From: Planctomycetia bacterium
GTDB taxonomy: Bacteria; Planctomycetota; Planctomycetia; Gemmatales; Gemmataceae
DNA: 36,584 nucleotides
Direction of reading: 5' to 3'
Assembly: GCA_005772955.1 (NCBI GenBank)
Contig: SXID01000225.1
Location: 1-36,584 of the forward strand
Shown piece by piece: positions 16,650-36,584 of this stretch (its first letter is position 1; the number at the start of each line of letters is the position of its first letter). The translations under genes and the position numbers were made by a program. The notes under the pieces were generated by a model. The model had not been told where the DNA came from, made no database searches, and worked only from the letters and a program-made list of their open reading frames with translations.

Positions 16650-18623
16650 CTACATTTCGGTCGCGGTGATCGGCTTGGGCGCGCCAACCGGACCCGGGGT
16701 GTTCGTCAGTGCATGCCGGTCGATGCCCTTGTCCTTCAGCTTTTTCAACTTGGTGTGGAGTGTGTCACGGCTGAGGTTCAACAACTTGGCCGCGTGGCTC
16801 ACGTTACCGTTGGTCTGCTTTATCGCCCGGCAGATGGCCCATGTCTCAACCTCGTCCATATCCAGGCTCGGCGGCACGTCAGCGGGCGGGCCGCCGACGT
16901 TCACCGGCGCGAGTTTGGTCAGCCCAGTCAGCGGGATCGCGTCGGCGTCGATTGTGTCGCCCTCACTCATCACCGCGGCGCTCTCGATGGCCGCACGCAA
17001 CTGGCGCACGTTCCCCGGCCACTGGTACGCCCGGAGATTCCGCATCGCGGCCGTCGTGAGTTTGAAATTCCGGCGGCATTCGTTGGACACCTTCGCCAGG
17101 AAGAACGCGGCCAGTTCGGGCACGTCCTCCGGGTGCTCGCGCAGCGGCGGCACGCGAACCTGAATCACCTTCAACCGGAAGAGGAGATCTTGCCGGAACC
17201 GCCCGGCGTTCACGTCCTTGTCGAGGTCGCGATGCGTCGCGGCCACGATCCGCACATCGGTCTTGATGTCAGCCGTCCCACCCACCGGACGGAACGCCTT
17301 GCCCTCGATCACGCGAAGCAACTTCGCCTGACATTCGAGTGATAGTTCGCCCACTTCGTCGAGGAACAGCGTGCCTTCGTCGGCTTGTTGGAACAAACCG
17401 GGGCGGTCGCGGTCCGCACCACTGAAGGCGCCCTTCTTGTAGCCAAACAGTTCCGCTTCGAGCAGTGTCGGCGCGATGGCCGCGCAGTTGACAACGACCA
17501 GCGGACCTTCCGCGCGGCGACTGTTGCGATGCAGCGCCAGCGCGACGAGTTCCTTACCAGACCCGCTCTCGCCCTGAACCAGCACCGTGAACGGTTGCGG
17601 CGCGGCGCGGAGGATATGCTGGCGAAGGAGGATGACGGCGTTGCTGCCGCCGATGATGTCGTCGGCCGCGGGGATGTGAGTGCGCAGGCGCGAGTTTTCC
17701 GCTTCGAGGGTGCGCCGCGTGCGGAGGATCTCCAGCCCGTGTGCGAGGAACCCGGCGACGGCTTCGATGAATCGCACGTCGCGTTCGACGAACGCGCGCC
17801 CGGTGCGGTACACGTGCAACGTCGCGAACGGCTCGCCCGACGCCTTCAGCGGGATGCAGATCGCGTCCGCGAACGCCGACAACGAGTCGGTCGGCGGGTG
17901 GGATGCGCTCAGGTCCGGGAACAACCAGACTGTCTTGCCGTTCTTCTGGGCCTGGGCTGTGAGTCGGCGGCTGAGCGGGATGTCGATCGCCGCCGACTCG
18001 GGCATCACGATCTTCGGGCCGGGGTTTTCCGGGTCGAGACTGAGATAGCCCGCCAGTTTCGCCGCAGTCTGATTCAGGATCGCTCGCAGCGCGAAGCTGA
18101 TCAGGTCGTGCGGAGTCTTGGTTTCGACCGCGCCGGTCATGAACTTGCACAGCGCGGTGAGTTCGTCTACGCGCAGTTGCTTCGCCATCTGATCCGGTGG
18201 CGGATCGGTCGATACAAGCCGGTCGAGCGGAACCTCGTAAACTTTTGTGGCGTTGTGAGGGCTTTCCTGGCCTACGCGGTTGGGCATCGTGTCCGGCGTT
18301 TCCTTGACCGGCTGCGGCGGGGACTTTGGTTCGAGAACGAACTTCAACACCACCTCGCCAATCTTGACCCGCTGCCCGTTGCCGAGTTCGGTCGCGCCGT
18401 TGACCCGGTGCCCATCCACGCGGGTTCCGTTAAGCCCGAAGTCGCGAACGTGCCAGCACCCGTCTTCGAAGTAGATCTTGGCGTGCGTGCGGCTGGCCAA
18501 CTCGTCTCGCAACACGATGGTGTTGTCGCGGCTACGACCGAGCGTGACCGGCTGTCCAGTCGGAGACAGGTCGAAGGACGGCGGCACGCATTCGCCGCCT
18601 TCAAGTGTGAGTCGCGCGCGCAT
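16650..18623 (-). CDS. FHA-GAF-AAA+-HTH sigma-54-dependent activator
   Basis: 657 aa from the ATG at 18623, with GGAG about 9 bases upstream; a TTG five codons earlier is less likely. An N-terminal FHA domain (about 25-97) shows LGRSRDN, SRTHAKI and DFGLNGTRV. A linker (100-145) leads to a GAF-like sensor (about 150-300). The AAA+ motor has GESGSGKE Walker A (351-358), GAFSGA at 399-404 in place of the usual GAFTGA, Walker B LFLDEVGE (419-426) and WPGNVRQLRAA (535-545). The Fis-type HTH is near DEVETWAICRAIK, NGNVSHAAKLLNLSRDTLHT. It should remodel sigma-54 RNA polymerase and sense phosphothreonine partners through FHA, linking Ser/Thr kinases to transcription. GAFSGA variants are known to occur and need not abolish function. 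Its target genes are unknown. It is divergent from leuD with a 226-bp spacer. Confidence 0.9.
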   Translation of the reverse strand: MRARLTLEGGECVPPSFDLSPTGQPVTLGRSRDNTIVLRDELASRTHAKIYFEDGCWHVRDFGLNGTRVDGHRVNGATELGNGQRVKIGEVVLKFVLEPKSPPQPVKETPDTMPNRVGQESPHNATKVYEVPLDRLVSTDPPPDQMAKQLRVDELTALCKFMTGAVETKTPHDLISFALRAILNQTAAKLAGYLSLDPENPGPKIVMPESAAIDIPLSRRLTAQAQKNGKTVWLFPDLSASHPPTDSLSAFADAICIPLKASGEPFATLHVYRTGRAFVERDVRFIEAVAGFLAHGLEILRTRRTLEAENSRLRTHIPAADDIIGGSNAVILLRQHILRAAPQPFTVLVQGESGSGKELVALALHRNSRRAEGPLVVVNCAAIAPTLLEAELFGYKKGAFSGADRDRPGLFQQADEGTLFLDEVGELSLECQAKLLRVIEGKAFRPVGGTADIKTDVRIVAATHRDLDKDVNAGRFRQDLLFRLKVIQVRVPPLREHPEDVPELAAFFLAKVSNECRRNFKLTTAAMRNLRAYQWPGNVRQLRAAIESAAVMSEGDTIDADAIPLTGLTKLAPVNVGGPPADVPPSLDMDEVETWAICRAIKQTNGNVSHAAKLLNLSRDTLHTKLKKLKDKGIDRHALTNTPGPVGAPKPITATEM

Positions 18624-18849
18624 CGCGAAACGCTCCAACGGACGCCCTGCCGCACTGTGATGAGAGAGGGCAGAGACAACGACTACCAGAACAACCGTTC
18701 GCTACGGAAAACTTTAGCATGCATTTTGCGTTCCGGAAGCCCGGTCCTTTCGGGGCAGGCGCTAAACCGGCCCGGACGAGTACGAAGGGTGTTGTCTCTT
18801 GCCCTCGTTGCCCTAACTAAGAAGAGGTCGTGCCCCGGAGGGAGTTTTC

Positions 18850-27723: not shown

Positions 27724-30180
27724 ATGCGATCTCGCCTGCTAGTCGCTAGCTGCGTTCTGGGATTTTTCGCCGCGGAACTTCGCGCGGCTGAACGACCCGC
27801 CGGCGCGCCCAAAGAACTGGTGATTCACCCGAAGGAAATGAAGCTGGTCGGGCCGCGAGACGAGGTGCGTGTGATCGTGCTCGGCGTGTGGGCCGACGGC
27901 CGCAAATGGGATCTCACGCACACCGCCAAACTCACGAGCGAGAACCCGAAGATCGCGACCACCGATAAAAGTATGCTGCGACCCGTCGGTGACGGCAGCA
28001 CCACGCTCATCGTCGAAGCTTTCGGCACGAAAGCGACCGTGCCCGTCACCGTGGAGAAATCGACCGCTGACGTGCCGGTGAGTTTCACAAACGAAGTCGA
28101 ACCGATTCTCACGAAAGCCGGGTGCAACGCGGGGAGTTGTCACGGGTCGCAGCACGGTCGCGGCGGCTTCAAACTGTCGCTGTTCGGGTTCGACCCTGGC
28201 TTCGACTACTTGCAGATCGTACAGAGCAACGAGGGCCGCCGCATCGTACCGAGCGACCCGGAGCGGAGCGTTCTGCTTGCGAAGCCCGCGCTCGTGATGG
28301 AGCACGGCGGCGGCGAGAAACTGAAACACAACGGCCGCGACTACGTCACCATTCGCTCGTGGCTCGAAGACGGCGCACCCGCGCCACCCGCTCGCGCCGA
28401 ACCCACCGTGACCAAGCTCGGAGTGTTCCCCGTCAGCCGGCTCATGGTCCCCGGCGAGCAACAACAACTCTCCATCATCGCGACGTGGTCCGACGGGCGC
28501 CGCGAGGATGTCACTTCGACGGCGCAGTTCGACGCGCTCAACGACGCGGTCGCGGTCGTGACGCCAATGGGCCTGGTCACCGCGAAGGACGCGGGCGAAA
28601 CGCACGTGATGATCCGCTACGGCGGCGCTGCTGAAGTCGCGCAGGTCACGCTGCCGTTCGCGAAGTTGGACGAGTTCCCGGAGGTAGTTGCGAACAACTT
28701 CATCGACACGCGTCTCATCGCGAAGTGGAAGGACTTGGGGCTGACGCCGTCGTCGCTTTCCACCGACGATGAGTTCCTCCGCCGCTTGTACCTCGACGCG
28801 ATCGGCACGCTTCCCACACCGGCCGAAGTGCGGGCGTTCCTCGATGACAAGGATCCGAAGAAGCGTGAGAAGGTCATCGACAAGGTTCTGGAACGCGGCG
28901 AGTTCATCGACTGGTGGGCGCTGAAGTGGGGCGACCTGCTTCGCATCAACCGCAGGGCGCTTCAAGAGAAGGGCATGTGGAGCTTCCACAACTGGGTTCG
29001 CGCGCAGGTTCGCGACAACGTGCCAATGGACGCGTTCGTGCGAGACGTGATCACGGCGGAGGGCAGCACGTTTACGGACGGCCCCGCGAACTTCTTCCAG
29101 ATCGGTCGCGGGTTGGAGGAGTGGTCGGAAACGACGACGCAACTGTTCCTCGGCGTGCGCATCGGGTGCGCGAAGTGCCACCACCACCCGTTCGAGAAGT
29201 GGAGCCAGGACGACTACTACGGCATGGCCGCGTTCTTCGCACGCATCGGCACGAAGACCAGTCAGGAGTTCGGCATCTTCGGTCGCGAAACGGTCATCTT
29301 CATTCGCAACACCGGCGAGGCCAGTCACCCACGCAAGCGGGGCGTCGTGAAGCCGATGCCGCTCGATGGCGACACGAACGTGAGTTGGGACGACGAGTTC
29401 GACCGGCGGAAGCGGCTCGCGGACTGGCTGACTTCTTCCTCGAACAAGATGTTCGCCAGGAACATGGCGAACCGGTTCTGGGGCTACACGATGGGTCGCG
29501 GCCTGGTCGAACCGCTCGACGACATGCGAGCCACCAACCCCGCGAGCAACCCCGAACTTCTCGACGCACTTGCAGACGAGTTAGTCAAGAACAAGTTCGA
29601 CCTGAAACACCTGTTGAAGACGATCTTCAACAGCCGGGCGTACCAGCTTTCGCACGCGAGCACACCGGGCAACAAGCTCGACACCGCGAACGTCCACTTC
29701 ACACGTTACACCGTGAAGCGGTTGACCGCGGAGCAGATCGCGGACGGCGTGGACTTCGCCACCGGCACGCGCGAGAAGTACATCGGGTTGCCGCTCGGCA
29801 CGAAGGCGATTCAGCTTCCCGACAGCGAAGTGCGGTCGTATCTGCTGGACACGTTCGGGCGCCCGCCGCGTCAGGTGTTGTGCGAGTGCGAGCGCACCAC
29901 GAAGCCAAACATCGCGCAGGCGATGCACCTTCTGAACGGCGACTTCCTCAACACGAAGATCGCGGACAAGACCGGTCGCGTGGAGAAGCTCATCACCGAC
30001 AAGGTGCCGCTCGCGAAGGCGGTGGAGGAACTGTATCTCGCGGCGTGGGGTCGCCGCCCGTCGCCTGACGAGCAGAAGAAAGCGGAGGGCTGGGTGAACA
30101 GCGCCCCGAACCTACGCGACGGACTTCAGGACTTGCTCTGGGTGCTCATCAACAGCCGCGAGTTCCAGTTCAACAAGTGA
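27724..30180 (+). CDS. Exported Ig-like/cytochrome-c-like DUF1549-DUF1553 protein
   Basis: 818 aa. The signal peptide is within the first 22 residues (LLVASCVLGFFAAELRA). Ig-like (BIG2) domains cover about 30-112 and 225-310. Between them is a planctomycete cytochrome-c-like segment, NEVEPILTKAGCNAGSCHGS (123-142), with a C-x4-C-H spacing instead of C-x2-C-H. DUF1549 follows (about 322-530), with LTPSSLSTDDEFLRRLYLDA near its start and a second CAKCH motif (482-486) in GCAKCHHHPFEKWSQDDYYG. DUF1553 ends the protein (about 555-815; NRFWGYTMGRGLVEP, RLTAEQIADGVDFATG, INSREFQF). Such proteins are abundant in planctomycetes and are thought to act on polymers or in redox-linked surface processes; the reaction is unknown. 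The usual DUF1501 partner gene is absent downstream. Confidence 0.9.
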   Translation: MRSRLLVASCVLGFFAAELRAAERPAGAPKELVIHPKEMKLVGPRDEVRVIVLGVWADGRKWDLTHTAKLTSENPKIATTDKSMLRPVGDGSTTLIVEAFGTKATVPVTVEKSTADVPVSFTNEVEPILTKAGCNAGSCHGSQHGRGGFKLSLFGFDPGFDYLQIVQSNEGRRIVPSDPERSVLLAKPALVMEHGGGEKLKHNGRDYVTIRSWLEDGAPAPPARAEPTVTKLGVFPVSRLMVPGEQQQLSIIATWSDGRREDVTSTAQFDALNDAVAVVTPMGLVTAKDAGETHVMIRYGGAAEVAQVTLPFAKLDEFPEVVANNFIDTRLIAKWKDLGLTPSSLSTDDEFLRRLYLDAIGTLPTPAEVRAFLDDKDPKKREKVIDKVLERGEFIDWWALKWGDLLRINRRALQEKGMWSFHNWVRAQVRDNVPMDAFVRDVITAEGSTFTDGPANFFQIGRGLEEWSETTTQLFLGVRIGCAKCHHHPFEKWSQDDYYGMAAFFARIGTKTSQEFGIFGRETVIFIRNTGEASHPRKRGVVKPMPLDGDTNVSWDDEFDRRKRLADWLTSSSNKMFARNMANRFWGYTMGRGLVEPLDDMRATNPASNPELLDALADELVKNKFDLKHLLKTIFNSRAYQLSHASTPGNKLDTANVHFTRYTVKRLTAEQIADGVDFATGTREKYIGLPLGTKAIQLPDSEVRSYLLDTFGRPPRQVLCECERTTKPNIAQAMHLLNGDFLNTKIADKTGRVEKLITDKVPLAKAVEELYLAAWGRRPSPDEQKKAEGWVNSAPNLRDGLQDLLWVLINSREFQFNK

Positions 30181-30269: not shown

Positions 30270-32603
30270 TCACTTCTCCTTCGTCATCGTGATGGGCTTG
30301 GCCCCGTCCTTCACTTCGCGGAAGTATTCGAGCCACAGCGCTTCGAGTTCGTTCCGTTCCTTACCCTGGATGTCTTTCGCGGCGTCGTAGCGCCGTTTCC
30401 GCTGCGCGGTTCCGTTGAACGCGATCGCGCCTTCCAGTTCAATCATCCGGTACAGGTCGCGGCGCACTAACTCGGCGTCGCCCTTCGCGTGGTTGTAGTA
30501 CGCGCTCAGGAACCACACGCCGGCTTCGCTCGGGTAGTGCAACAGGGCGCTGTCCAACCACGTCTTTGTTTTCTTCGCGTCGGTGCCGCTCAGGAGCTTC
30601 GCGCCGTAGGCCATGCTGAACCGGGCTGCCTGCGGGTCGGTGTCGGGAGGTCCGGTGACGCGAACAATCCGCACCTGCTTGTCGGCCGGGGCGCGGCGCT
30701 TGTACGTCGGGTGGTCGCGGAGCAACTTCGCGAGCAACATGGCCGGTTCGTTCTCCAACCGGCCCGCGACGTGCGCGTCGAAGATCAGGTTCACGTTCGC
30801 GTCGTACCGCGCAGACTCAATGCGGATCCCGTCGAACTCCGGGTACGCGGGCACGACACGCTTCACGCGGTCGAGTAGGTCGCTCAGCGGAACCACCTCG
30901 AGCACGGGCTTGTTCGGCGTGGGCGTGAAGTAATCCGCCCATTTCACGTCCGCCTTCAGTTCGTCGAATAGCTTCACCAACGCGTCGTTCTGAACGGCGG
31001 TGTCCACCACGCCGCGGAGCGTGAAGCGGTTCTCCGCGTCGAAGTACCCGCGCTCGATCAGCACGCCGTTCCACCGCTTCTGGTCGCCGGCCATCTCCTT
31101 CCGCAAGTGCGCCGTGAAGCCCGCGGAAAACGTGGTCGGGTCGGTCGCGGGTTCGGGCGTCTTCGCGGGCTGAATCGCCGCGCGGACGAACACCGGCGCG
31201 TCGGCGTCAGGCAAAGCCGAATCGCCCTTCGGCAGCTTCGGCGCGTCCGCGGGCAGGTACTTCGCGGCCAGTTCCTTGAACTTCAACTGCACCTTGTCGG
31301 AGTCGGCCTTCGTCACCGTCTTGACTTGCAACTTCAACCCGCCGTCGGCGGCGAAGTAGATGCGCGACAGACGCGCGTCGTCCATCGTGTTCGCGGCCCA
31401 CTCGCGGATTTCGCTGAGCAACTTGCCCGTGGGCACAACCTTCATCTGCTTGACGGAAACGCCGCCTTCCGCGAGCTTCTTGTACCGCGGCGAGTCAGCG
31501 TCGGCCTTGTCAACGAACTCCTTGACGACCGCCTGATACGTCGCGATCAATTCCTTCTCGGCCGCGGCGGTCAGGCCCGGCTGGAGGCCCGCGAACATCA
31601 GGCTCCCGTCCGCGGCGAACTCCGCACCGGGGTCGATACGGACGCCGTCGAGTGCGGGCTTCGCCGCGACCGTGGTCTGGAACTTCGCGGTCGGCTCCGG
31701 GAGGCCCGGCCCGAGTAGCGGGTCCGGGTACACCAGCACCTTCGGCACGCCGGCGAACAGTTCTGGCCACTGTTTGCGGCACGCTTCGGTAAGTGCTTCC
31801 TTATCGACCGGGTCGGTGCCGAGGCGCACGCCGGTGAGCGTGGCGCGGAAGGTGCTCCATCGGGCCACGAGGTCGGGGTTCTCCGCGTCGTAAGCCAGAT
31901 ACACGCGATCGACGCGGAGCCGGCGCGTTGACGCGTCGGGGGACGTGGCGAAGAGCTTCTGCACGTCCGCGGGCGAGAGCTTCCAATCGACGGGCTTTGT
32001 CTCGTCGGTGACGAGCGGCTTGTCGGCGACGACCTTCACGGCCGGGTGCTTGGCGAGGTGCGCGGTAATCGCGGACGCGAGCCACTTCGCGGTGTCCGCG
32101 TCCTTGCCGCGCGTGCCGGACAGGATCACGCCGCCGTTGGCCCCGAAGCGGCTCCCCGCGAACAGGAACCGGTCCGCGGCGGCGTCCTTCTCGCCGGCCG
32201 CGTTCGCGGCCACCTGGAGGACGACGTGCGGATGATCCTTCGGCTCGATCTTCTTCACGCCGGCCCACTCGAACTTGAGTTTGTCGTCCTTGAGGCGGTC
32301 GCGAAGGAGCTTGCTGGCTTCTTCCTGAACGGCGTCGAACGGGAGCGTGTCGCCCTCCTTCGCCGCGGGTCCGTCGAGGAACACGCCGGTCACTTTGACC
32401 TGCCCATCGACAGCCTCGAACTTGTCAATACGTAAGCGCTTCTGCGAGTCGGTTCCACCGGCGAAGCCCTTCTGGATTTCGCCGAGTTGCTTTTGCGCTT
32501 CGGCAGCAGATTTGGGTACGTCGTCTTGCGCGGGGGCGCGCGACGCGAGCGCGACGAGCGCGAGAAGGGCGAGCGTGCGGAATAGTGGTTGAAGCAGGGC
32601 CAT
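30270..32603 (-). CDS. Large exported repeat protein of unknown function
   Basis: 777 aa from the ATG at 32603, with GAGGAA upstream; a longer frame to 32723 overlaps the PP2C gene. The signal peptide is MALLQPLFRTLALLALVALA plus SRAPAQ. At least six segments share the pattern (L/I)R(I/V)..-YDA-L-L-G: LRIDKFEAVDGQVKVTGVFL, LRVDRVYLAYDAENPDL, VRIDPGAEFAADGSLMFAGL, LSRIYFAADGGLKLQV, VLIERGYFDAENRFTLRGV and IRIESARYDANVNLIFDAHV. Each is followed by a helix, recalling BON-type alpha/beta units. The last 150 residues look like TPR-type helices (KTWLDSALLHYPSEAGVWFL). Role unknown. It starts 16 bp after the phosphatase gene, so it is probably an exported output or partner of that module. Confidence 0.75.
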   Translation of the reverse strand: MALLQPLFRTLALLALVALASRAPAQDDVPKSAAEAQKQLGEIQKGFAGGTDSQKRLRIDKFEAVDGQVKVTGVFLDGPAAKEGDTLPFDAVQEEASKLLRDRLKDDKLKFEWAGVKKIEPKDHPHVVLQVAANAAGEKDAAADRFLFAGSRFGANGGVILSGTRGKDADTAKWLASAITAHLAKHPAVKVVADKPLVTDETKPVDWKLSPADVQKLFATSPDASTRRLRVDRVYLAYDAENPDLVARWSTFRATLTGVRLGTDPVDKEALTEACRKQWPELFAGVPKVLVYPDPLLGPGLPEPTAKFQTTVAAKPALDGVRIDPGAEFAADGSLMFAGLQPGLTAAAEKELIATYQAVVKEFVDKADADSPRYKKLAEGGVSVKQMKVVPTGKLLSEIREWAANTMDDARLSRIYFAADGGLKLQVKTVTKADSDKVQLKFKELAAKYLPADAPKLPKGDSALPDADAPVFVRAAIQPAKTPEPATDPTTFSAGFTAHLRKEMAGDQKRWNGVLIERGYFDAENRFTLRGVVDTAVQNDALVKLFDELKADVKWADYFTPTPNKPVLEVVPLSDLLDRVKRVVPAYPEFDGIRIESARYDANVNLIFDAHVAGRLENEPAMLLAKLLRDHPTYKRRAPADKQVRIVRVTGPPDTDPQAARFSMAYGAKLLSGTDAKKTKTWLDSALLHYPSEAGVWFLSAYYNHAKGDAELVRRDLYRMIELEGAIAFNGTAQRKRRYDAAKDIQGKERNELEALWLEYFREVKDGAKPITMTKEK

Positions 32604-32619: not shown

Positions 32620-34356
32620 TCAGACGCCTGGGTCCGTCGATTCCGGGAAACCGTCCCTGGTTGCCGGTGGTTCGTCCGGCGGTAATTCTTCCGGCTCCGG
32701 TGCCGGCGGGTCGTGGGGCACATCGATCATCAGGTCGCCGACATCGGCCGCGATGAAGGCGTCTTCCTTCTGGGGCGAACTGGGCGCGTCAACGCCCGGA
32801 AGCTGCGCGAGTTGAGTGAGCGATGCCTCCGGTTGCTGACGCTCCCAGTTCGCCTCGAACTCGCTCGCTTCTTCGCTCCCACCGCTGACTCGAAGAACGA
32901 CGAGCGTGCAGTCGTCGTTCACCATGTCGTTCGCGCTGCGGAGTATGTCCAACTCGGCGCGCCATTCGTCTTCCGTGATCACCTCAAACCGGCTCCACTC
33001 CAACTCGGGTCCGAGGGCGGCACTCTTGAACAGCCGCGCGGCGACCGCGTCGGTTGCAAGGATGAACCGGTCGCCGGGTTCGCACGTTCCGGCCGCGGCG
33101 ATCGCGACCGTGCGGAAGCCGGGGCTTGACCGAACCAGTAGCGGCGCGGAGCCGAACTGATCGGCTGCAACCACTGGGAACGTTGCGAGCAACCGCCCGC
33201 TGCGCACCCAGAAGAGGCTCGCGTCACCGACCGCACACGCGCGCCACGGACGCTTCCCGTTCGCGTCCGCGGGTCCGAGTTCCAATCCTAAAAGCGTTGC
33301 CGCCGCGCCTACCTGATTGACCTTCGCCTGTTTCGACCAGTTCAGCGTACTATAACTGATCGCGGCGCGCCACTCCGTTCGTAGGCCGTTTACCCATTTA
33401 TTCAGCGAAACCGGGTCACGCGTATCGGGTCGGTCGGACAGGAACCGCTGGCTCAACTGCTGCGCCCAGATGCTGCAGTAGATGCCGCTACTCGCGCCGT
33501 CGGCGATTGCCGCCGCGCCACCGGCCTCGTTCAGCGCGAAGGCATCTTCCCACTGTTCCGGCGTGTTGCCCATCTTCTGCGCCCACATCGAGCGAGCGGG
33601 GGCGAACCCCGCGTCCGCCTCCGTCCATGCGGTTCCGTCTTCCTGCGGCGCAATGCTGAAGATCGCGTCCCACGGGTCGCCGATGTCCCAGTCGTTGACG
33701 AACACGCGGCCGGGAAGACTGCCGGCCCCCCCCCAAAAATCCCCTCCCTGCAGGGAGGGGGGTGGCGGGGTAGGTTCCCCAAACACATAATGCAGCACGC
33801 GCGTCGGGCCGTGAGCGGTCGCGAGTAACGTGAGCGAGTTGGCAACGCGGCTGTACGCTTCGTCAAGCCCGTCGCTGCCGGTGCAATGGATAACGACCGG
33901 CGCGCGGCTTGAATAGCGCCCGGTGAGCCACACGGACACCATCTGGTAGACGCTCGCGAGCGCGTCGCCCGCGCACGGTTCGCCTTCGCACGTGGGGAGA
34001 ACGGCCCACTTGCGCGGTTGGCCCTCGGCGCCGCGCGCGACCGCAGGCATCTCCGCGACTTGCGCGAGCGGTACGAACCGCGCCATTGGGTCGCCATCGG
34101 GTAGCAGAGAGAGCAGTTGCGGCGTGCCGCCTTCGGAAGTGCGATACCCCAACACCGCCACGTCGACGGCGCCGACCGCGTACCCGCCCGCGACGGTGTT
34201 CACCAGTCCTTCGAGGAACTCGTCCGCGAGTTGCCGCGCCGCGACGAAGGCCGGAATGTCGCCGCGCGACGTGGGTACGTCCGCGGTCATCCCGGCCGAC
34301 AGGCGGAGCAGCAATACGAGGCAACCGGGCGGCGGCTCGGCGGGGGTCGGGTCCAT
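32620..34356 (-). CDS. PP2C-family phosphatase with degenerate vWA N-terminus
   Basis: 578 aa from the ATG at 34356, with GGGAG a few bases upstream; a GTG four codons earlier is possible. Residues 11-195 have vWA-like order (GCLVLLLRLSAGM, then VDVAVLGYR, APVVIHCTGSDGLDEAYSRV), but the DxSxS metal site is lost. Residues 195-215 are a Pro/Gly insertion encoded by a palindrome. Residues about 245-490 form a PP2C_2-type domain: AAIADGASS (D286), AVGDASLFWVR (D378), GDRFILATDAVAARL (D436) and NDDCTLVVLRV (D481/D482), the positions of the metal-binding Asp residues. The first PP2C Asp is less clear. The acidic Pro-rich tail has no fold. It should dephosphorylate Ser/Thr phosphoproteins in the cytosol, next to the vWA and FHA-like genes. 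Confidence 0.8.
   Translation of the reverse strand: MDPTPAEPPPGCLVLLLRLSAGMTADVPTSRGDIPAFVAARQLADEFLEGLVNTVAGGYAVGAVDVAVLGYRTSEGGTPQLLSLLPDGDPMARFVPLAQVAEMPAVARGAEGQPRKWAVLPTCEGEPCAGDALASVYQMVSVWLTGRYSSRAPVVIHCTGSDGLDEAYSRVANSLTLLATAHGPTRVLHYVFGEPTPPPPSLQGGDFWGGAGSLPGRVFVNDWDIGDPWDAIFSIAPQEDGTAWTEADAGFAPARSMWAQKMGNTPEQWEDAFALNEAGGAAAIADGASSGIYCSIWAQQLSQRFLSDRPDTRDPVSLNKWVNGLRTEWRAAISYSTLNWSKQAKVNQVGAAATLLGLELGPADANGKRPWRACAVGDASLFWVRSGRLLATFPVVAADQFGSAPLLVRSSPGFRTVAIAAAGTCEPGDRFILATDAVAARLFKSAALGPELEWSRFEVITEDEWRAELDILRSANDMVNDDCTLVVLRVSGGSEEASEFEANWERQQPEASLTQLAQLPGVDAPSSPQKEDAFIAADVGDLMIDVPHDPPAPEPEELPPDEPPATRDGFPESTDPGV
33726..33760. repeat. In-gene palindrome and nine-C tract inside the PP2C gene
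   Basis: A perfect 20-nt palindrome (33741-33760, centre CTGCAG) lies in the coding sequence next to a run of nine C (33726-33734; nine G in the coding direction). It encodes the Pro-rich PTPPPPSLQGGDFWGGAGS stretch that separates the vWA-like and PP2C domains. The composition resembles the repeat at 11780-11802. The reading frame is kept across it. Confidence 0.75.
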
Positions 34357-34374
34357 TCGGTCTCCCACGCGGTT

Positions 34375-34434
34375 CTTGTAGGACAGGCTTCCAGCCTGTC
34401 TTCGGTGGAGCAGGCTGGAAGCCTGTCCTACAAG
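34375..34434. repeat. Perfect palindrome filling the vWA-PP2C gap
   Basis: Arms 34375-34398 and 34411-34434 (cttgtaggacaggcttccag and its complement, 24 nt) enclose 12 nt. The element ends at the very base before the vWA stop codon (34435-34437), and its other end is about 18 bp before the PP2C start. The gap is therefore almost entirely repeat. It is a further family, unlike A or B. Confidence 0.85.
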
Positions 34435-35331
34435 TTACCGCAGGTGCGGCGGCAGCGTGGCCGCGGCGACCACCTGCGTGCCGACGTTTAGCAACTTCAG
34501 CAGGCTGACCGCGTCCGCGTTGAACGCCATCGCCTTGCACCCCAGCGGCGCCGAAATGCCCTTTACTTCCGCCATGTGCCGCAACTTGTCCGGCAGCGGG
34601 CTGGACATGCCGAACAAGTCGCGGGCGTATTCGTCGGGCAGTAGCCCTTCCGTTGGCGGCAGGAACACCGGTTGCGCGTCGCGGCCCGACAGGTGGCAGT
34701 TGAACAGCAGCACTGCGCCGTCGGCGGTCGTGAGGGCTTTGAGATCTTCCGCGAACGGCACCGGCATTCCGTCGGTGGACTCGCCGTCGGTCAGATTGAT
34801 GACCATCGGCGGGAAGCTGTTCGGGTGTGCCTCGATCCACGCCTGGAGCACCTGCTTGCAGTAACCCAACGCTGTACACATCGGCGTGCCGAACATCTCG
34901 GTCGGGGGCGGCGAGCGGAACCACACCGGGAACGCGATCTGCACTTCCACTTCACTGAGACCGCCGGCGCCGTCGTCCACGAACTCCTTCTTGCGGCGCT
35001 GCTCGATTTCCAGCGGGTTGTCGTACAGTTCGCTGATGCTAACGAGGTCGCGCCCGGCGAGGCTCAACTGGAACAGCGGGCGGACGATGGCGCTACCGTT
35101 GGAGTCGGTGGTGTACCCGATCAGTCCCACGTCGAAGTAGTTGCGCGGCTTCTCTTCGCCCTTCTCGCAACTCGTGATGAGTTCCTGGAAGAACCGGTTG
35201 ATGGCGGTGGACACGGTGTCCATCTTCGCGCGCTGTGTGCCCGCGATGCCGTCCAACATGGAGTTGGAAAGGTCCACCAGGAACACGATACAGCCGGGGT
35301 TCGAGCGGTCGATCTGCATGTCGTAGGGCAT
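34435..35331 (-). CDS. von Willebrand factor A domain protein (TerY-like)
   Basis: 298 aa from the ATG at 35331, with GAGGAAA about 8 bases upstream. The vWA MIDAS site is complete: VFLVDLSNSM (D20, S22, S24), GTPM (T149) and NLTDGEST (D182). The strand/helix order is standard. There is no signal peptide, so it is cytosolic. The sequence is close in style to the TerY-type vWA proteins (opening IDRSNPGCIVFLVDLSNSML, then VGLIGYTTD). The last 100 residues (LLFNCHLSGRDAQPVFLPP, then ALGCKAMAFNADAVSLLKLL) form the family's C-terminal extension. vWA proteins of this group form metal-dependent complexes with kinases and PP2C phosphatases, and the next gene codes for such a phosphatase. Confidence 0.85.
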   Translation of the reverse strand: MPYDMQIDRSNPGCIVFLVDLSNSMLDGIAGTQRAKMDTVSTAINRFFQELITSCEKGEEKPRNYFDVGLIGYTTDSNGSAIVRPLFQLSLAGRDLVSISELYDNPLEIEQRRKKEFVDDGAGGLSEVEVQIAFPVWFRSPPPTEMFGTPMCTALGYCKQVLQAWIEAHPNSFPPMVINLTDGESTDGMPVPFAEDLKALTTADGAVLLFNCHLSGRDAQPVFLPPTEGLLPDEYARDLFGMSSPLPDKLRHMAEVKGISAPLGCKAMAFNADAVSLLKLLNVGTQVVAAATLPPHLR

Positions 35332-35385
35332 TGCGAAATTTCCTCAGGTGTCGATCAGGGAAAGGGGTGTTTCAGTATCGCCTTG

Positions 35386-35494
35386 TAGGGTGGGTCAAGG
35401 CTTTGCGCAGGCCCACCAGCGCTGAGCTACAGCCGTAACGTTGATCGTTCTGGTGTCGCCGTGGTGGCCCTGCGCAAAGCCTTGACCCACCCTA
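35386..35494. repeat. Long inverted repeat between FHA-like and vWA genes
   Basis: Arms tagggtgggtcaaggctttg... (35386-35410) and their complement (35470-35494) are 25-nt perfect inverted copies. The match continues with gaps into gcccacca/tggtggcc. The loop is about 59 nt. It sits in the 170-bp spacer of an otherwise tight gene run, 7 bp from the stop of the upstream gene. Confidence 0.8.
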
Positions 35495-35501
35495 TAAGAA
35501 G

Positions 35502-36584
35502 TCAAAACGTCTTGTCGCACACCATGCAATATCGCGCACCGGGGCGACCGGGCGACTTCCGACCGCAGGTCGGGCACGCGTCCGGGTCGCCGGCCTTCGG
35601 CGCGCTCGCGGGCGCGGGCGGCTTCGCGACGGTCGGCACGGGCGGCTTCGCGGGGGCTGGCGGTGCCGCGGGCTTTGGCGGCGCGGGAACCGGTGAAGCC
35701 GCTTGCGGCGTCGCGACGGTCGGCACGGGCGGCTGCGCGGGTGCAGCCGGGCGCGGGCCATCGTCGAAGTCGAGAATCGATGCCGCCGCACGACGCGGGG
35801 GCGGAGGCGGCGACATCGGCATCGGCAAACCGTCGTCGTAATCGTCCTGCGCCGTGGTTTTCGCGGGCACTGGTGCCACAGTCGCTTGCGGCTTCGCGAG
35901 AACGGGCGGTGCCGGTGGTCGCGAAGCCGCAGGCGGTGGCGCGACGGGCGCCGCGGTGCCGCTCGTACGCACCACCACGGTCACGTTGCCCGCGGTTCGC
36001 GTGTCGCCGTTGAGCGAGGTCTCTTCGCGCCTCGTCGGGACGTCCTCGCAGAACACCTTGCCGTCGCGAATCCAGTACTTGAGCGCGACATCGGCCGCGC
36101 CGCGCGCCCACACGGTGCAGGACCGCGAGTCGCCGCCGACCTTCACCGGTTCCGGGCCGAGGTTCACGGTAATAACCTCGCGCTCGCTGAACCGCACTTC
36201 GAGCCACGCGCGCCGGAACGCCGCTTCGACCACCGCGACCATCAACCCAATGCAGAAGCCGAGCAGCGCGGCCCCGCCGAATCGCCCGATCCAGTCCTTC
36301 ACTTCCGACATCATGAGAAACGCGAGCGCACCAAGAAGCCCCCCGCCCAATCCCGCGAGCGCGGCCTTCTTGCCGTCGAGGTTTGGGATGAAGAAGCTCA
36401 CGCCACCACCGAGCAGCGCGCCGAGTAGAACCCATCCGATTAGGAAGCCGAGTTTCGCCGCGCCGAGCGAGAGCAACACAAAGAACAGCGACTGCCCGAT
36501 GCTACCGGACACGAACCCAGCCGCGGACGCACCGAGGATCACAAGCGCCAGCGGCACGCGGCCCGACGCGAACAGCGGTTTGCC
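35502..36584 (-). CDS. Membrane protein with FHA-like and zinc-ribbon parts (partial)
   Basis: The N-terminus is outside the window: the frame continues without a start or stop to base 36584 (codons before the GTG at 36557 read GKPLFASGR). About four hydrophobic segments are seen (ALVILGASAAGFVSGSIGQ, LFFVLLSLGAAKLGFLIGWV, LAGLGGGLLGALAFLMM and LLGFCIGLMVAVVEAAF). A beta-rich FHA-like segment follows (EVITVNLGPEPVKVGGDSRS, then VALKYWIRDGKVFCEDV); the canonical Ser/His of FHA are not obvious, so phosphopeptide binding is doubtful. After a long Pro/Ala linker of about 120 residues comes a terminal zinc ribbon: CPTCG, 12 residues, CMVCDKTF. It is the first visible gene of a run with vWA and PP2C and may link that module to the membrane. 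Confidence 0.7.
   Translation of the reverse strand, partial: GKPLFASGRVPLALVILGASAAGFVSGSIGQSLFFVLLSLGAAKLGFLIGWVLLGALLGGGVSFFIPNLDGKKAALAGLGGGLLGALAFLMMSEVKDWIGRFGGAALLGFCIGLMVAVVEAAFRRAWLEVRFSEREVITVNLGPEPVKVGGDSRSCTVWARGAADVALKYWIRDGKVFCEDVPTRREETSLNGDTRTAGNVTVVVRTSGTAAPVAPPPAASRPPAPPVLAKPQATVAPVPAKTTAQDDYDDGLPMPMSPPPPPRRAAASILDFDDGPRPAAPAQPPVPTVATPQAASPVPAPPKPAAPPAPAKPPVPTVAKPPAPASAPKAGDPDACPTCGRKSPGRPGARYCMVCDKTF

What the first reader, a model, noticed from the sequence alone, without database searches (positions are those of the whole stretch)
32620..36584. vWA + PP2C + FHA-like/zinc-ribbon membrane module resembling a TerY-P signalling set
Seen: co-directional genes for a membrane FHA-like/zinc-ribbon protein, a vWA protein with a complete MIDAS site, and a PP2C phosphatase with its own degenerate vWA domain, followed 16 bp later by a large exported repeat protein. 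Known: vWA-PP2C-kinase triads are described in Ter-linked stress systems. Inference: this is a planctomycete variant with an added membrane anchor and exported partner, and a kinase may lie just beyond the window edge. The double vWA (one active, one dead) suggests a heterodimer.
Basis: partly seen in the sequence, partly recalled or inferred. Interest (0 to 1): 0.8.

Follow-up and report, generated by a model that had tools for sequence, protein, structure and literature searches.

The report
Membrane-anchored TerY-P switch in GTPase operon
In a group of planctomycete bacteria, a kinase, a phosphatase and a metal-binding adaptor are encoded with a GTPase switch and membrane proteins in one long gene cluster, apparently a membrane-bound version of a switch known from stress and virus defence.

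Summary
The four minus-strand genes are the 3' part of a conserved operon that the contig edge cuts. The window is a whole contig; its right end and the end of contig C85 of the same genome encode parts of one FHA-membrane gene, with about 0.8 kb missing between them (adjacency inferred). Order: DO-GTPase2, kinase, GAP1, X, FHA-membrane protein, TerY vWA, degenerate-vWA/PP2C, exported repeat protein. PADLOC models name the trio TerY, PP2C and STK_OB. The order recurs in other planctomycetes and the three triad trees split alike. The 'FHA-like' segment fails sequence profiles but is predicted to have an FHA fold without phosphothreonine-binding residues. Candidatus Marithrix has a four-gene version (vWA, PP2C, kinase, vWA/TM/FHA) without GAP1 nearby.

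Kaur et al. 2020 describe a kinase/PP2C/vWA theme in GAP1-N2/DO-GTPase systems, restricted to actinobacteria; this is a planctomycete variant with a vWA-PP2C fusion, FHA hub and exported partner. Against an obligate unit: three genomes have the operon split, and in Gemmata IIL30 no GAP1 was found. Output, heterodimer and defence role are untested. Ter linkage is not supported (no TerD).

The parts
35502..36584 (-). FHA-membrane protein, C-terminal 360 codons (5' part inferred on contig C85): multi-TM region, FHA-fold domain, Pro-rich linker, zinc ribbon
   Evidence: ORF open at contig edge; C85 end encodes residues 1-51 of the G043 ortholog, 65% identity; the window begins at ortholog residue 339
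35940..36227 (-). degenerate FHA-fold domain
   Evidence: AF2 pLDDT 87.2; nearly all of the 50 Foldseek PDB rows shown are FHA or FHA-type domains; VIA Z up to 11.7; pThr motif residues missing
35505..35576 (-). C-terminal Cys4 zinc-ribbon motif CPTC..CMVC
   Evidence: read in the translation; also at the end of most complete relatives printed (not L127 or L135)
34435..35331 (-). TerY-type vWA protein, 298 aa, complete MIDAS
   Evidence: PADLOC TerY 253.6 bits; DxSxS/T/D in 13 of 13; Pfam VWA only 19.8-20.1 bits, below cut-off
32620..34356 (-). degenerate vWA fused to PP2C phosphatase, 578 aa
   Evidence: Pfam PP2C_2 24.2 bits, cut-off 24; PADLOC PP2C 84.1 bits; alignment of 12
32887..33576 (-). 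PP2C catalytic domain
   Evidence: PADLOC match to residues 265-494 of the 582-aa ORF; acidic residues invariant in 12 of 12
30270..32603 (-). exported repeat protein: about seven alpha-beta-beta-alpha-beta units and a helical C-terminus
   Evidence: AF2 pLDDT 79.4 (unit count is my reading); weak Foldseek hits, best E 0.045, to T3SS periplasmic ring proteins among others; C-terminus TPR-like, Z 8.8

Best explanation
The genes are the distal part of a planctomycete GAP1-N2/DO-GTPase2 operon that carries a TerY-P triad (MIDAS vWA, PP2C, kinase) anchored at the membrane. Shown by sequence or structure prediction: the parts, their conserved order in relatives, conserved metal-site residues in the PP2C, an intact MIDAS in the standalone vWA, a degenerate vWA fused to the PP2C, and an FHA fold without pThr-binding residues in the membrane protein. 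Inferred working model: extracytoplasmic Ig-like and vWA domains of the membrane proteins sense a surface or envelope event; the signal crosses the TM bundle to the cytosolic FHA-fold/zinc-ribbon hub; DO-GTPase2 with GAP1 is the switch; the kinase phosphorylates members of the complex; the PP2C, docked through its dead vWA on the metal-bound TerY vWA or on the hub, resets it. The TerY vWA is the central adaptor, in keeping with its being the slowest-evolving part. The output may be a counter-invader membrane response or envelope remodelling.
For: Identity: PADLOC TerY, PP2C and STK_OB; DO-GTPase2 35.6 bits (cut-off 27) and GAP1-M 25.6 bits (cut-off 24). Adjacency: the C85 end and the window end encode two parts of one gene; the genome has four TM-FHA copies, and the other three, two on C85 and one on C26, have starts of their own. 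Order: FHA-membrane gene followed by vWA in 14 of 15 testable genomes, vWA by vWA-PP2C in 15 of 15, PP2C by the repeat gene in 13 of 15. Trees of vWA, PP2C and kinase each separate the operon type from the family's other triads, SH-aLRT 100, 97 and 100 (quick method). Among 61 family genomes all 6 with the operon-type vWA have a strong GAP1, against 1 of the other 55. GAP1-N2/TerY-vWA fusions occur in two genomes. The vWA has the highest identity to the window's of all parts compared in 14 of 14 genomes or loci where it could be compared.
Against: The operon is split in G043, G355 and Gemmata IIL30/G354. In IIL30 a search with the own-genome GAP1 found none, although vWA, PP2C and kinase persist. 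Of GAP1-N2 loci elsewhere in the phylum, 0 of 20 stretches examined carry the triad. 16 of the 38 named loci hold a membrane-vWA or TM-FHA gene with no triad gene recognised in the stretch. In G016 and G056 other genes lie between DO-GTPase and kinase; X was not detected in G033. The GAP1-N2 domain scores near its cut-off (21.3-25.6 bits; 24 required). Pfam scans of the operon proteins named no FNIII and no effector domain. No experiment bears on the mechanism.
Confidence: 0.6

Rival explanations
1. A stand-alone TerY-P antiphage system; the GTPase genes are neighbours only.
For: PADLOC hits to TerY, PP2C and STK_OB models; other vWA-PP2C-kinase triads occur in the same family; IIL30 keeps vWA, PP2C and kinase with no GAP1 found.
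Against: Operon-type vWA and GAP1 co-occur in 6 of 6 family genomes; contiguity across genera; GAP1-TerY fusions, though the G043 fusion's vWA groups with the other triads, not the operon type.
Confidence: 0.2
2. An envelope-assembly or membrane-remodelling machine of ordinary physiology rather than defence: FHA hub at the inner membrane, exported ring-like repeat protein, and a secretin.
For: Weak Foldseek hits of the repeat protein to T3SS periplasmic rings; FHA-fold hits include five T3SS cytosolic-domain rows; a secretin gene (PF00263, 76.1 bits for the own copy) lies directly upstream of a membrane-vWA gene in L009, L112 and L117. Makarova and Koonin 2010 predicted membrane remodelling for FtsZ-like operons with vWA, GTPase and kinase genes (passages).
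Against: The ring hits have E of 0.045 or worse, unrelated folds score about as well, and PrgH has Z 6.7; the secretin was seen next to three loci only; no FtsZ-like protein was recognised in the operon proteins scanned; patchy presence (operon-type vWA in 6 of 61 family genomes).
Confidence: 0.2

Closest known systems
GAP1-N2/DO-GTPase systems with kinase, PP2C and standalone vWA (third theme of Kaur et al. 2020, PMC7159879; passages and section 29 read)
   Same: DO-GTPase2, GAP1-N2/M, kinase, PP2C and standalone vWA in one locus; membrane components
   Different: That theme was reported as restricted to actinobacteria; here it is planctomycete, the PP2C is fused to a degenerate vWA, the membrane protein carries an FHA fold and zinc ribbon, and an exported repeat protein and protein X are added
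TerY-P triad (described in PMC11090510 and PMC7699616, passages read; Gao et al. 2020 and Anantharaman et al. 2012 not seen)
   Same: TerY vWA with MIDAS, PP2C, Ser/Thr kinase
   Different: The STK_OB model matches only the kinase half of the 976-aa protein; no TerD in the genome; embedded in a GTPase operon
[quoted passage not shown]
   Same: One MIDAS-complete and one MIDAS-deficient TerY-like vWA in one operon
   Different: There the second vWA lacks the threonine and is encoded in the operon as a vWA of its own; here it lacks the DxSxS aspartate and is fused to PP2C. I did not search for CoCoNuT genes
FHA-type cytosolic domains of T3SS YscD/MxiG/PscD
   Same: FHA fold in a membrane protein; lack of the canonical pThr site in these is recalled, not from a call
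   Different: The window domain scores better against canonical FHA domains; type III secretion genes were not searched for

Membership tests
TerY-P triad | TerY-like vWA with complete MIDAS | tested here: met
   PADLOC 253.6 bits over 1-286; D20/S22/S24/T149/D182 in 13 of 13
TerY-P triad | PP2C phosphatase with metal-site residues | tested here: met
   PADLOC 84.1 bits, Pfam PP2C_2 24.2 bits against 24; acidic residues in 12 of 12
TerY-P triad | Ser/Thr kinase in the same locus | tested here: met
   STK_OB 170.9 bits; Pfam Pkinase only 13.4 bits, below cut-off; same locus in 10 of 12 relatives whose stretch reaches it, by contig-end inference in the own genome
TerY-P triad | kinase C-terminal OB fold or zinc ribbon | tested here: inconclusive
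   STK_OB matched at 2-288 of 562 only; no zinc ribbon listed by Pfam
TerY-P triad | antiphage activity | not testable with these tools
   no experiment
Ter-linked system | TerD-family gene in the genome | tested here: not met
   PF02342: 0 matches in the own genome; the control rings in 2 of 14 genomes
GAP1-N2/DO-GTPase system | DO-GTPase2 | tested here: met
   35.6 bits against 27
GAP1-N2/DO-GTPase system | GAP1-N2 and GAP1-M domains | tested here: met
   GAP1-M 24.9-25.6 bits against 24; GAP1-N2 borderline: 21.9 and 21.3 by protein scan, 25.6 by genome search, cut-off 24
GAP1-N2/DO-GTPase system | FNIII-repeat protein | tested here: inconclusive
   Ig-like regions by eye, but no Pfam fn3 hit
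FHA domain | FHA fold | tested here: met
   AF2 pLDDT 87.2, Foldseek 6 hits with E up to 0.001, VIA Z 11.7, rmsd 1.9, 86 aligned
FHA domain | sequence-profile similarity | tested here: not met
   hhalign probability 4.5%, 27 columns, against 13 own-genome FHA domains; no Pfam hit
phosphothreonine-binding FHA | GR and SxxH motif residues (motif recalled) | tested here: not met
   GR in 0 of 28; SxxH pattern in 1 of 28, off register by my reading; both in 13 of 13 own-genome FHA domains
T3SS-like basal body | ring-building periplasmic repeats and secretin | tested here: inconclusive
   weak hits only; secretin beside a membrane-vWA gene in three loci

The most novel reading that the evidence does not exclude
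The TM/degenerate-FHA protein is the fourth subunit of a general membrane-anchored kinase/PP2C/vWA switch, found in minimal form in Candidatus Marithrix and in planctomycete L131. In Gemmataceae and kin this tetrad was merged with a GAP1/DO-GTPase switch, an exported ring-like repeat protein and in places a secretin, giving a trans-envelope signalling machine.
Probability: 0.2. Interest if true: 0.8.

Novelty: new variant of a known kind. Interest (0 to 1): 0.55.

Why it matters
It extends the kinase/PP2C/vWA theme of GAP1-N2 systems, reported as restricted to actinobacteria, to planctomycetes. It suggests that the 'uncharacterized beta-strand-rich domain' which Kaur et al. note in membrane proteins of such systems may be a degenerate FHA (untested), and it gives a compact four-gene version in which a membrane link of TerY-P-like switches can be tested. 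The search for GAP1/DO-GTPase names listed three papers; in the passages I read of two of them I saw predictions only.

Tried and rejected
Sequence-only FHA assignment: rejected, then rescued by structure. A Ter-operon setting: rejected for TerD. Reading the exported repeat protein as a BON or ring-building-motif protein: left open, because the hits are weak. Looking for the tetrad across the class of Marithrix: 73 of 274 genomes matched, but apart from Marithrix's own protein the listed matches end by residue 210 of 476, in the vWA region, so they show no TM-FHA relatives. PADLOC gave no hit for the FHA-membrane protein, X, GAP1, the DO-GTPase or the repeat protein. NCBIfam gave no useful name. 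My gene caller missed vWA genes in L101 and L133 (found), so I repeated the maps of 16 named loci and the 20 phylum stretches with all ORFs of 80 aa or more. A first FHA alignment held only 3 rows because a pattern was too narrow; repeated with 11. Of 17 own-genome FHA matches I took 14 and dropped L087, whose strand my script misread, leaving 13. L137, a distant protein with only part of the TM-FHA region, was not counted in the order counts; no vWA was seen after it.

Literature: GAP1/DO-GTPase names (1 and 3 papers); TerY-P with planctomycet (0 papers); broader terms (73, 9 and 8 papers, of which I saw listings and the passages named). These cover only the held open-licence PMC library, so they do not show that nothing is in print.
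Full report
OBSERVATION. The window is the whole contig C213 of a 5.9-Mb, 278-contig genome, so the finding is cut by the contig edge. All four genes are there, on the minus strand: a membrane protein open at 36584, a 298-aa vWA protein, a vWA-PP2C protein (start at 34356 by comparison with relatives) and an exported repeat protein whose ATG at 32603 lies 16 nt after the PP2C stop.

WHAT LIES BEYOND THE EDGE. A DNA search of the own genome found a related region on contig C85 (locus L009). It encodes a secretin-like protein (PF00263, 76.1 bits), two membrane proteins with vWA, TM, FHA-like and zinc-ribbon parts, a DO-GTPase2 (35.6 bits), a kinase and a GAP1 protein. The last 190 bases of C85 encode the start of the FHA-membrane protein (65% identity over residues 1-51 of the ortholog in G043), after GAP1 and a 503-aa protein X. 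The window begins at residue 339 of the same ortholog. The missing stretch is therefore about 0.8 kb, if the ortholog's length holds. The genome has four TM-FHA copies; those on C26 and C85 have starts, and only the window's copy does not.

CONSERVATION. I compared neighbourhoods in unnamed family genomes and in 38 named loci from one scan of genome contigs (by title planctomycetes such as Gemmata, Gemmataceae, Isosphaera and Singulisphaera, except two Candidatus Marithrix and one Fimbriimonadales). L108, L111 and L126 have the contig lengths and places of G016, G056 and G028 and were counted once. The FHA-membrane gene of the window's type is followed by the vWA gene in 14 of 15 genomes where the record continues (own, G043, G016, G056, G033, G028, L101, L104, L105, L107, L110, L113, L129, L133 yes; L103 no). 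In L102, L106 and L109 the record ends. In L129 the vWA is cut by the record end. The operon-type vWA is followed by vWA-PP2C in 15 of 15, and that by the repeat gene in 13 of 15 (not in G033 or L104). A kinase lies upstream in the same locus in 10 of 12 genomes whose stretch reaches that far, own genome not counted (in L133 only its C-terminal part is on the record); G043 and L104 have it elsewhere. The order is not rigid: in G016 and G056 other genes lie between DO-GTPase and kinase, X was not detected in G033 and only weakly in L107, and the membrane-vWA genes lie after the repeat gene in several relatives (L101, L107, L113-L116) but before the DO-GTPase in the own genome.

SPLITS AND LONE COPIES. 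G043 has DO-GTPase, kinase and GAP1 some 600 kb from X, FHA, vWA, PP2C and repeat gene. G355 (source of L103) has the break between the FHA gene and the vWA. Gemmata IIL30 (G354, source of L104) has FHA-membrane (in two ORFs), vWA and PP2C in one place and the kinase elsewhere; no GAP1 was found. So the window's genes can persist apart from the GTPase core. Of the 38 named loci, 16 (L112, L117-L125, L127, L128, L130, L132, L134, L137) hold a membrane-vWA or TM-FHA gene with no triad gene recognised in the stretch.

TRIAD IDENTITY. PADLOC models give TerY 253.6 bits, PP2C 84.1 and, for the C85 kinase, STK_OB 170.9. The MIDAS of the standalone vWA is invariant in 13 of 13. The PP2C acidic residues are invariant in 12 of 12, and its N-terminal vWA has no DxSxS aspartate in the same 12. 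The kinase shows VALK, HGDLxxxN and DYD motifs in its sequence (motif meaning recalled). Trees of vWA (31 rows), PP2C (25) and kinase (25) each split the operon type from other triads of the family, SH-aLRT 100, 97 and 100 (quick method, no bootstrap). In the PP2C tree a very long branch (L058) sits next to the operon group and the tool warns about it. The vWA is the best-conserved part: own against G043 95%, the other seven parts 48-73%; it ranks first in 14 of 14 rows where it was compared.

LINK TO GAP1. In 61 family genomes the operon-type vWA (60% identity or more) occurs in 6, all with a strong GAP1; of the other 55 one (G011) has a strong GAP1 (Fisher p 1.3e-7, relatedness not corrected; weak GAP1 matches in G053, G050 and G020 not counted). 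GAP1-N2/M fused to a TerY-like vWA occurs in G043 (GAP1-N2 49.5 bits) and, by my own models, in G355; the G043 fusion's vWA groups with the other triads, not the operon type. In the phylum, 22 of 294 genomes have GAP1-N2 and 4 of 294 have the TM-FHA part, three of them weakly (22-35 bits). I fetched 20 stretches from 19 of the 21 non-own GAP1-N2 genomes (three are 5-8 kb): none has a triad hit, although the same models find a triad on a Calothrix plasmid. Of two of these loci I scanned 8 proteins with Pfam: both have GYF domains, one also a trypsin and a MotA/ExbB protein, in line with the planctomycete GYF systems of Kaur et al..

FHA. By sequence the segment fails: no Pfam hit and hhalign probability 4.5% over 27 columns against 13 FHA domains of the same genome. 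Two proteins of similar TM plan are true FHA proteins by Pfam: one in G028 with the same linker and zinc ribbon (38.9 bits) and one in L138 (54.3 bits). The AF2 model (pLDDT 87.2) has FHA domains as its leading PDB matches (6 with E at or under 0.001; of 50 rows shown, five are T3SS cytosolic domains and nearly all the rest FHA proteins by title or as I recall their content; best Z 11.7). GR is in 0 of 28 and SxxH in 1 of 28 aligned segments, against 13 of 13 for both in own-genome FHA domains; an NG pair is in 10 of 28, but not at the motif place by my reading. So it has an FHA fold without the usual pThr site.

REPEAT PROTEIN. AF2 (pLDDT 79.4; 11 sequences, row one beginning one codon before the ATG) gives about seven alpha-beta-beta-alpha-beta units and a helical C-terminus. 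PDB hits are weak: none at or under 0.001; T3SS ring proteins E 0.045-0.048, NusA 0.054, DolP 0.14; the C-terminus resembles TPR, Z 8.8, and TPR_9 matches 2 of 11 members (best E 0.0016). This is suggestive only.

MINIMAL FORM. In Candidatus Marithrix (gammaproteobacteria) the order is vWA (32.5 bits), PP2C (129.1), kinase (47.6), vWA/TM/FHA-like protein (L135). The second Marithrix record shows PP2C, kinase and the membrane protein, and ends before the place of a vWA (L136). In planctomycete L131 a PIN-kinase protein (kinase 24.8 bits, below cut-off), vWA, PP2C (127.1) and vWA/TM/FHA-like protein stand in a row. In L138 the FHA TM protein is followed by a kinase with a double zinc ribbon. None of my GAP1 or DO-GTPase models hit in L131 or L135. 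So a link of a TM-FHA protein with kinase, PP2C and vWA is seen outside the GAP1 setting, in few genomes: in the class of Marithrix no further TM-FHA relative was listed in 274 genomes.

COMPARISON AND VERDICT. Kaur et al. 2020 (PMC7159879; passages and section 29 read) describe kinase, PP2C and standalone vWA in 10% of GAP1-N2 neighbourhoods, restricted to actinobacteria. The present operon is a planctomycete variant with added parts. TerY-P and the precedent of a MIDAS-deficient second vWA are in PMC11090510 (passages); TerY-P as an antiphage system is in PMC7699616 (one passage). I rate it a new variant of a known kind. My confidence that these genes form one GAP1/TerY-P operon is about 0.9 and in the working mechanism about 0.45; the single figure lies between them.

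Noticed in passing
window 35382-35498 and 34375-34434: Two intergenic palindromes between operon genes (37-bp arms 95% complementary; 24-bp perfect arms), both with further copies in the genome; the first folds as RNA at -83 kcal/mol, z -10.2.
   Followed up: partly
window 16653-18638: FHA + GAF + sigma-54 activator + HTH_8 regulator, a true FHA protein elsewhere in the window.
   Followed up: no
L009:1749-5942, L112:4208-8386, L117:4180-8382: Secretin-type gene directly upstream of a membrane-vWA gene in three loci.
   Followed up: partly
L059:8893-10947 and L202:2572-4638: GAP1-N2 fused to a TerY-like vWA in two genomes; in L202 kinase, PP2C and vWA genes lie nearby.
   Followed up: partly
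L131:1-1860: PIN domain with a weak kinase match in one protein at the head of a vWA/PP2C/FHA-membrane set.
   Followed up: no
L115:3-119: A fragment identical to the last 39 residues of the window's vWA lies just before an intact vWA gene; possible partial duplication or assembly effect.
   Followed up: no
window 27724-30180: Planctomycete PSCyt2/PSD1 (DUF1549/DUF1553) protein on the opposite strand beside the operon end.
   Followed up: no
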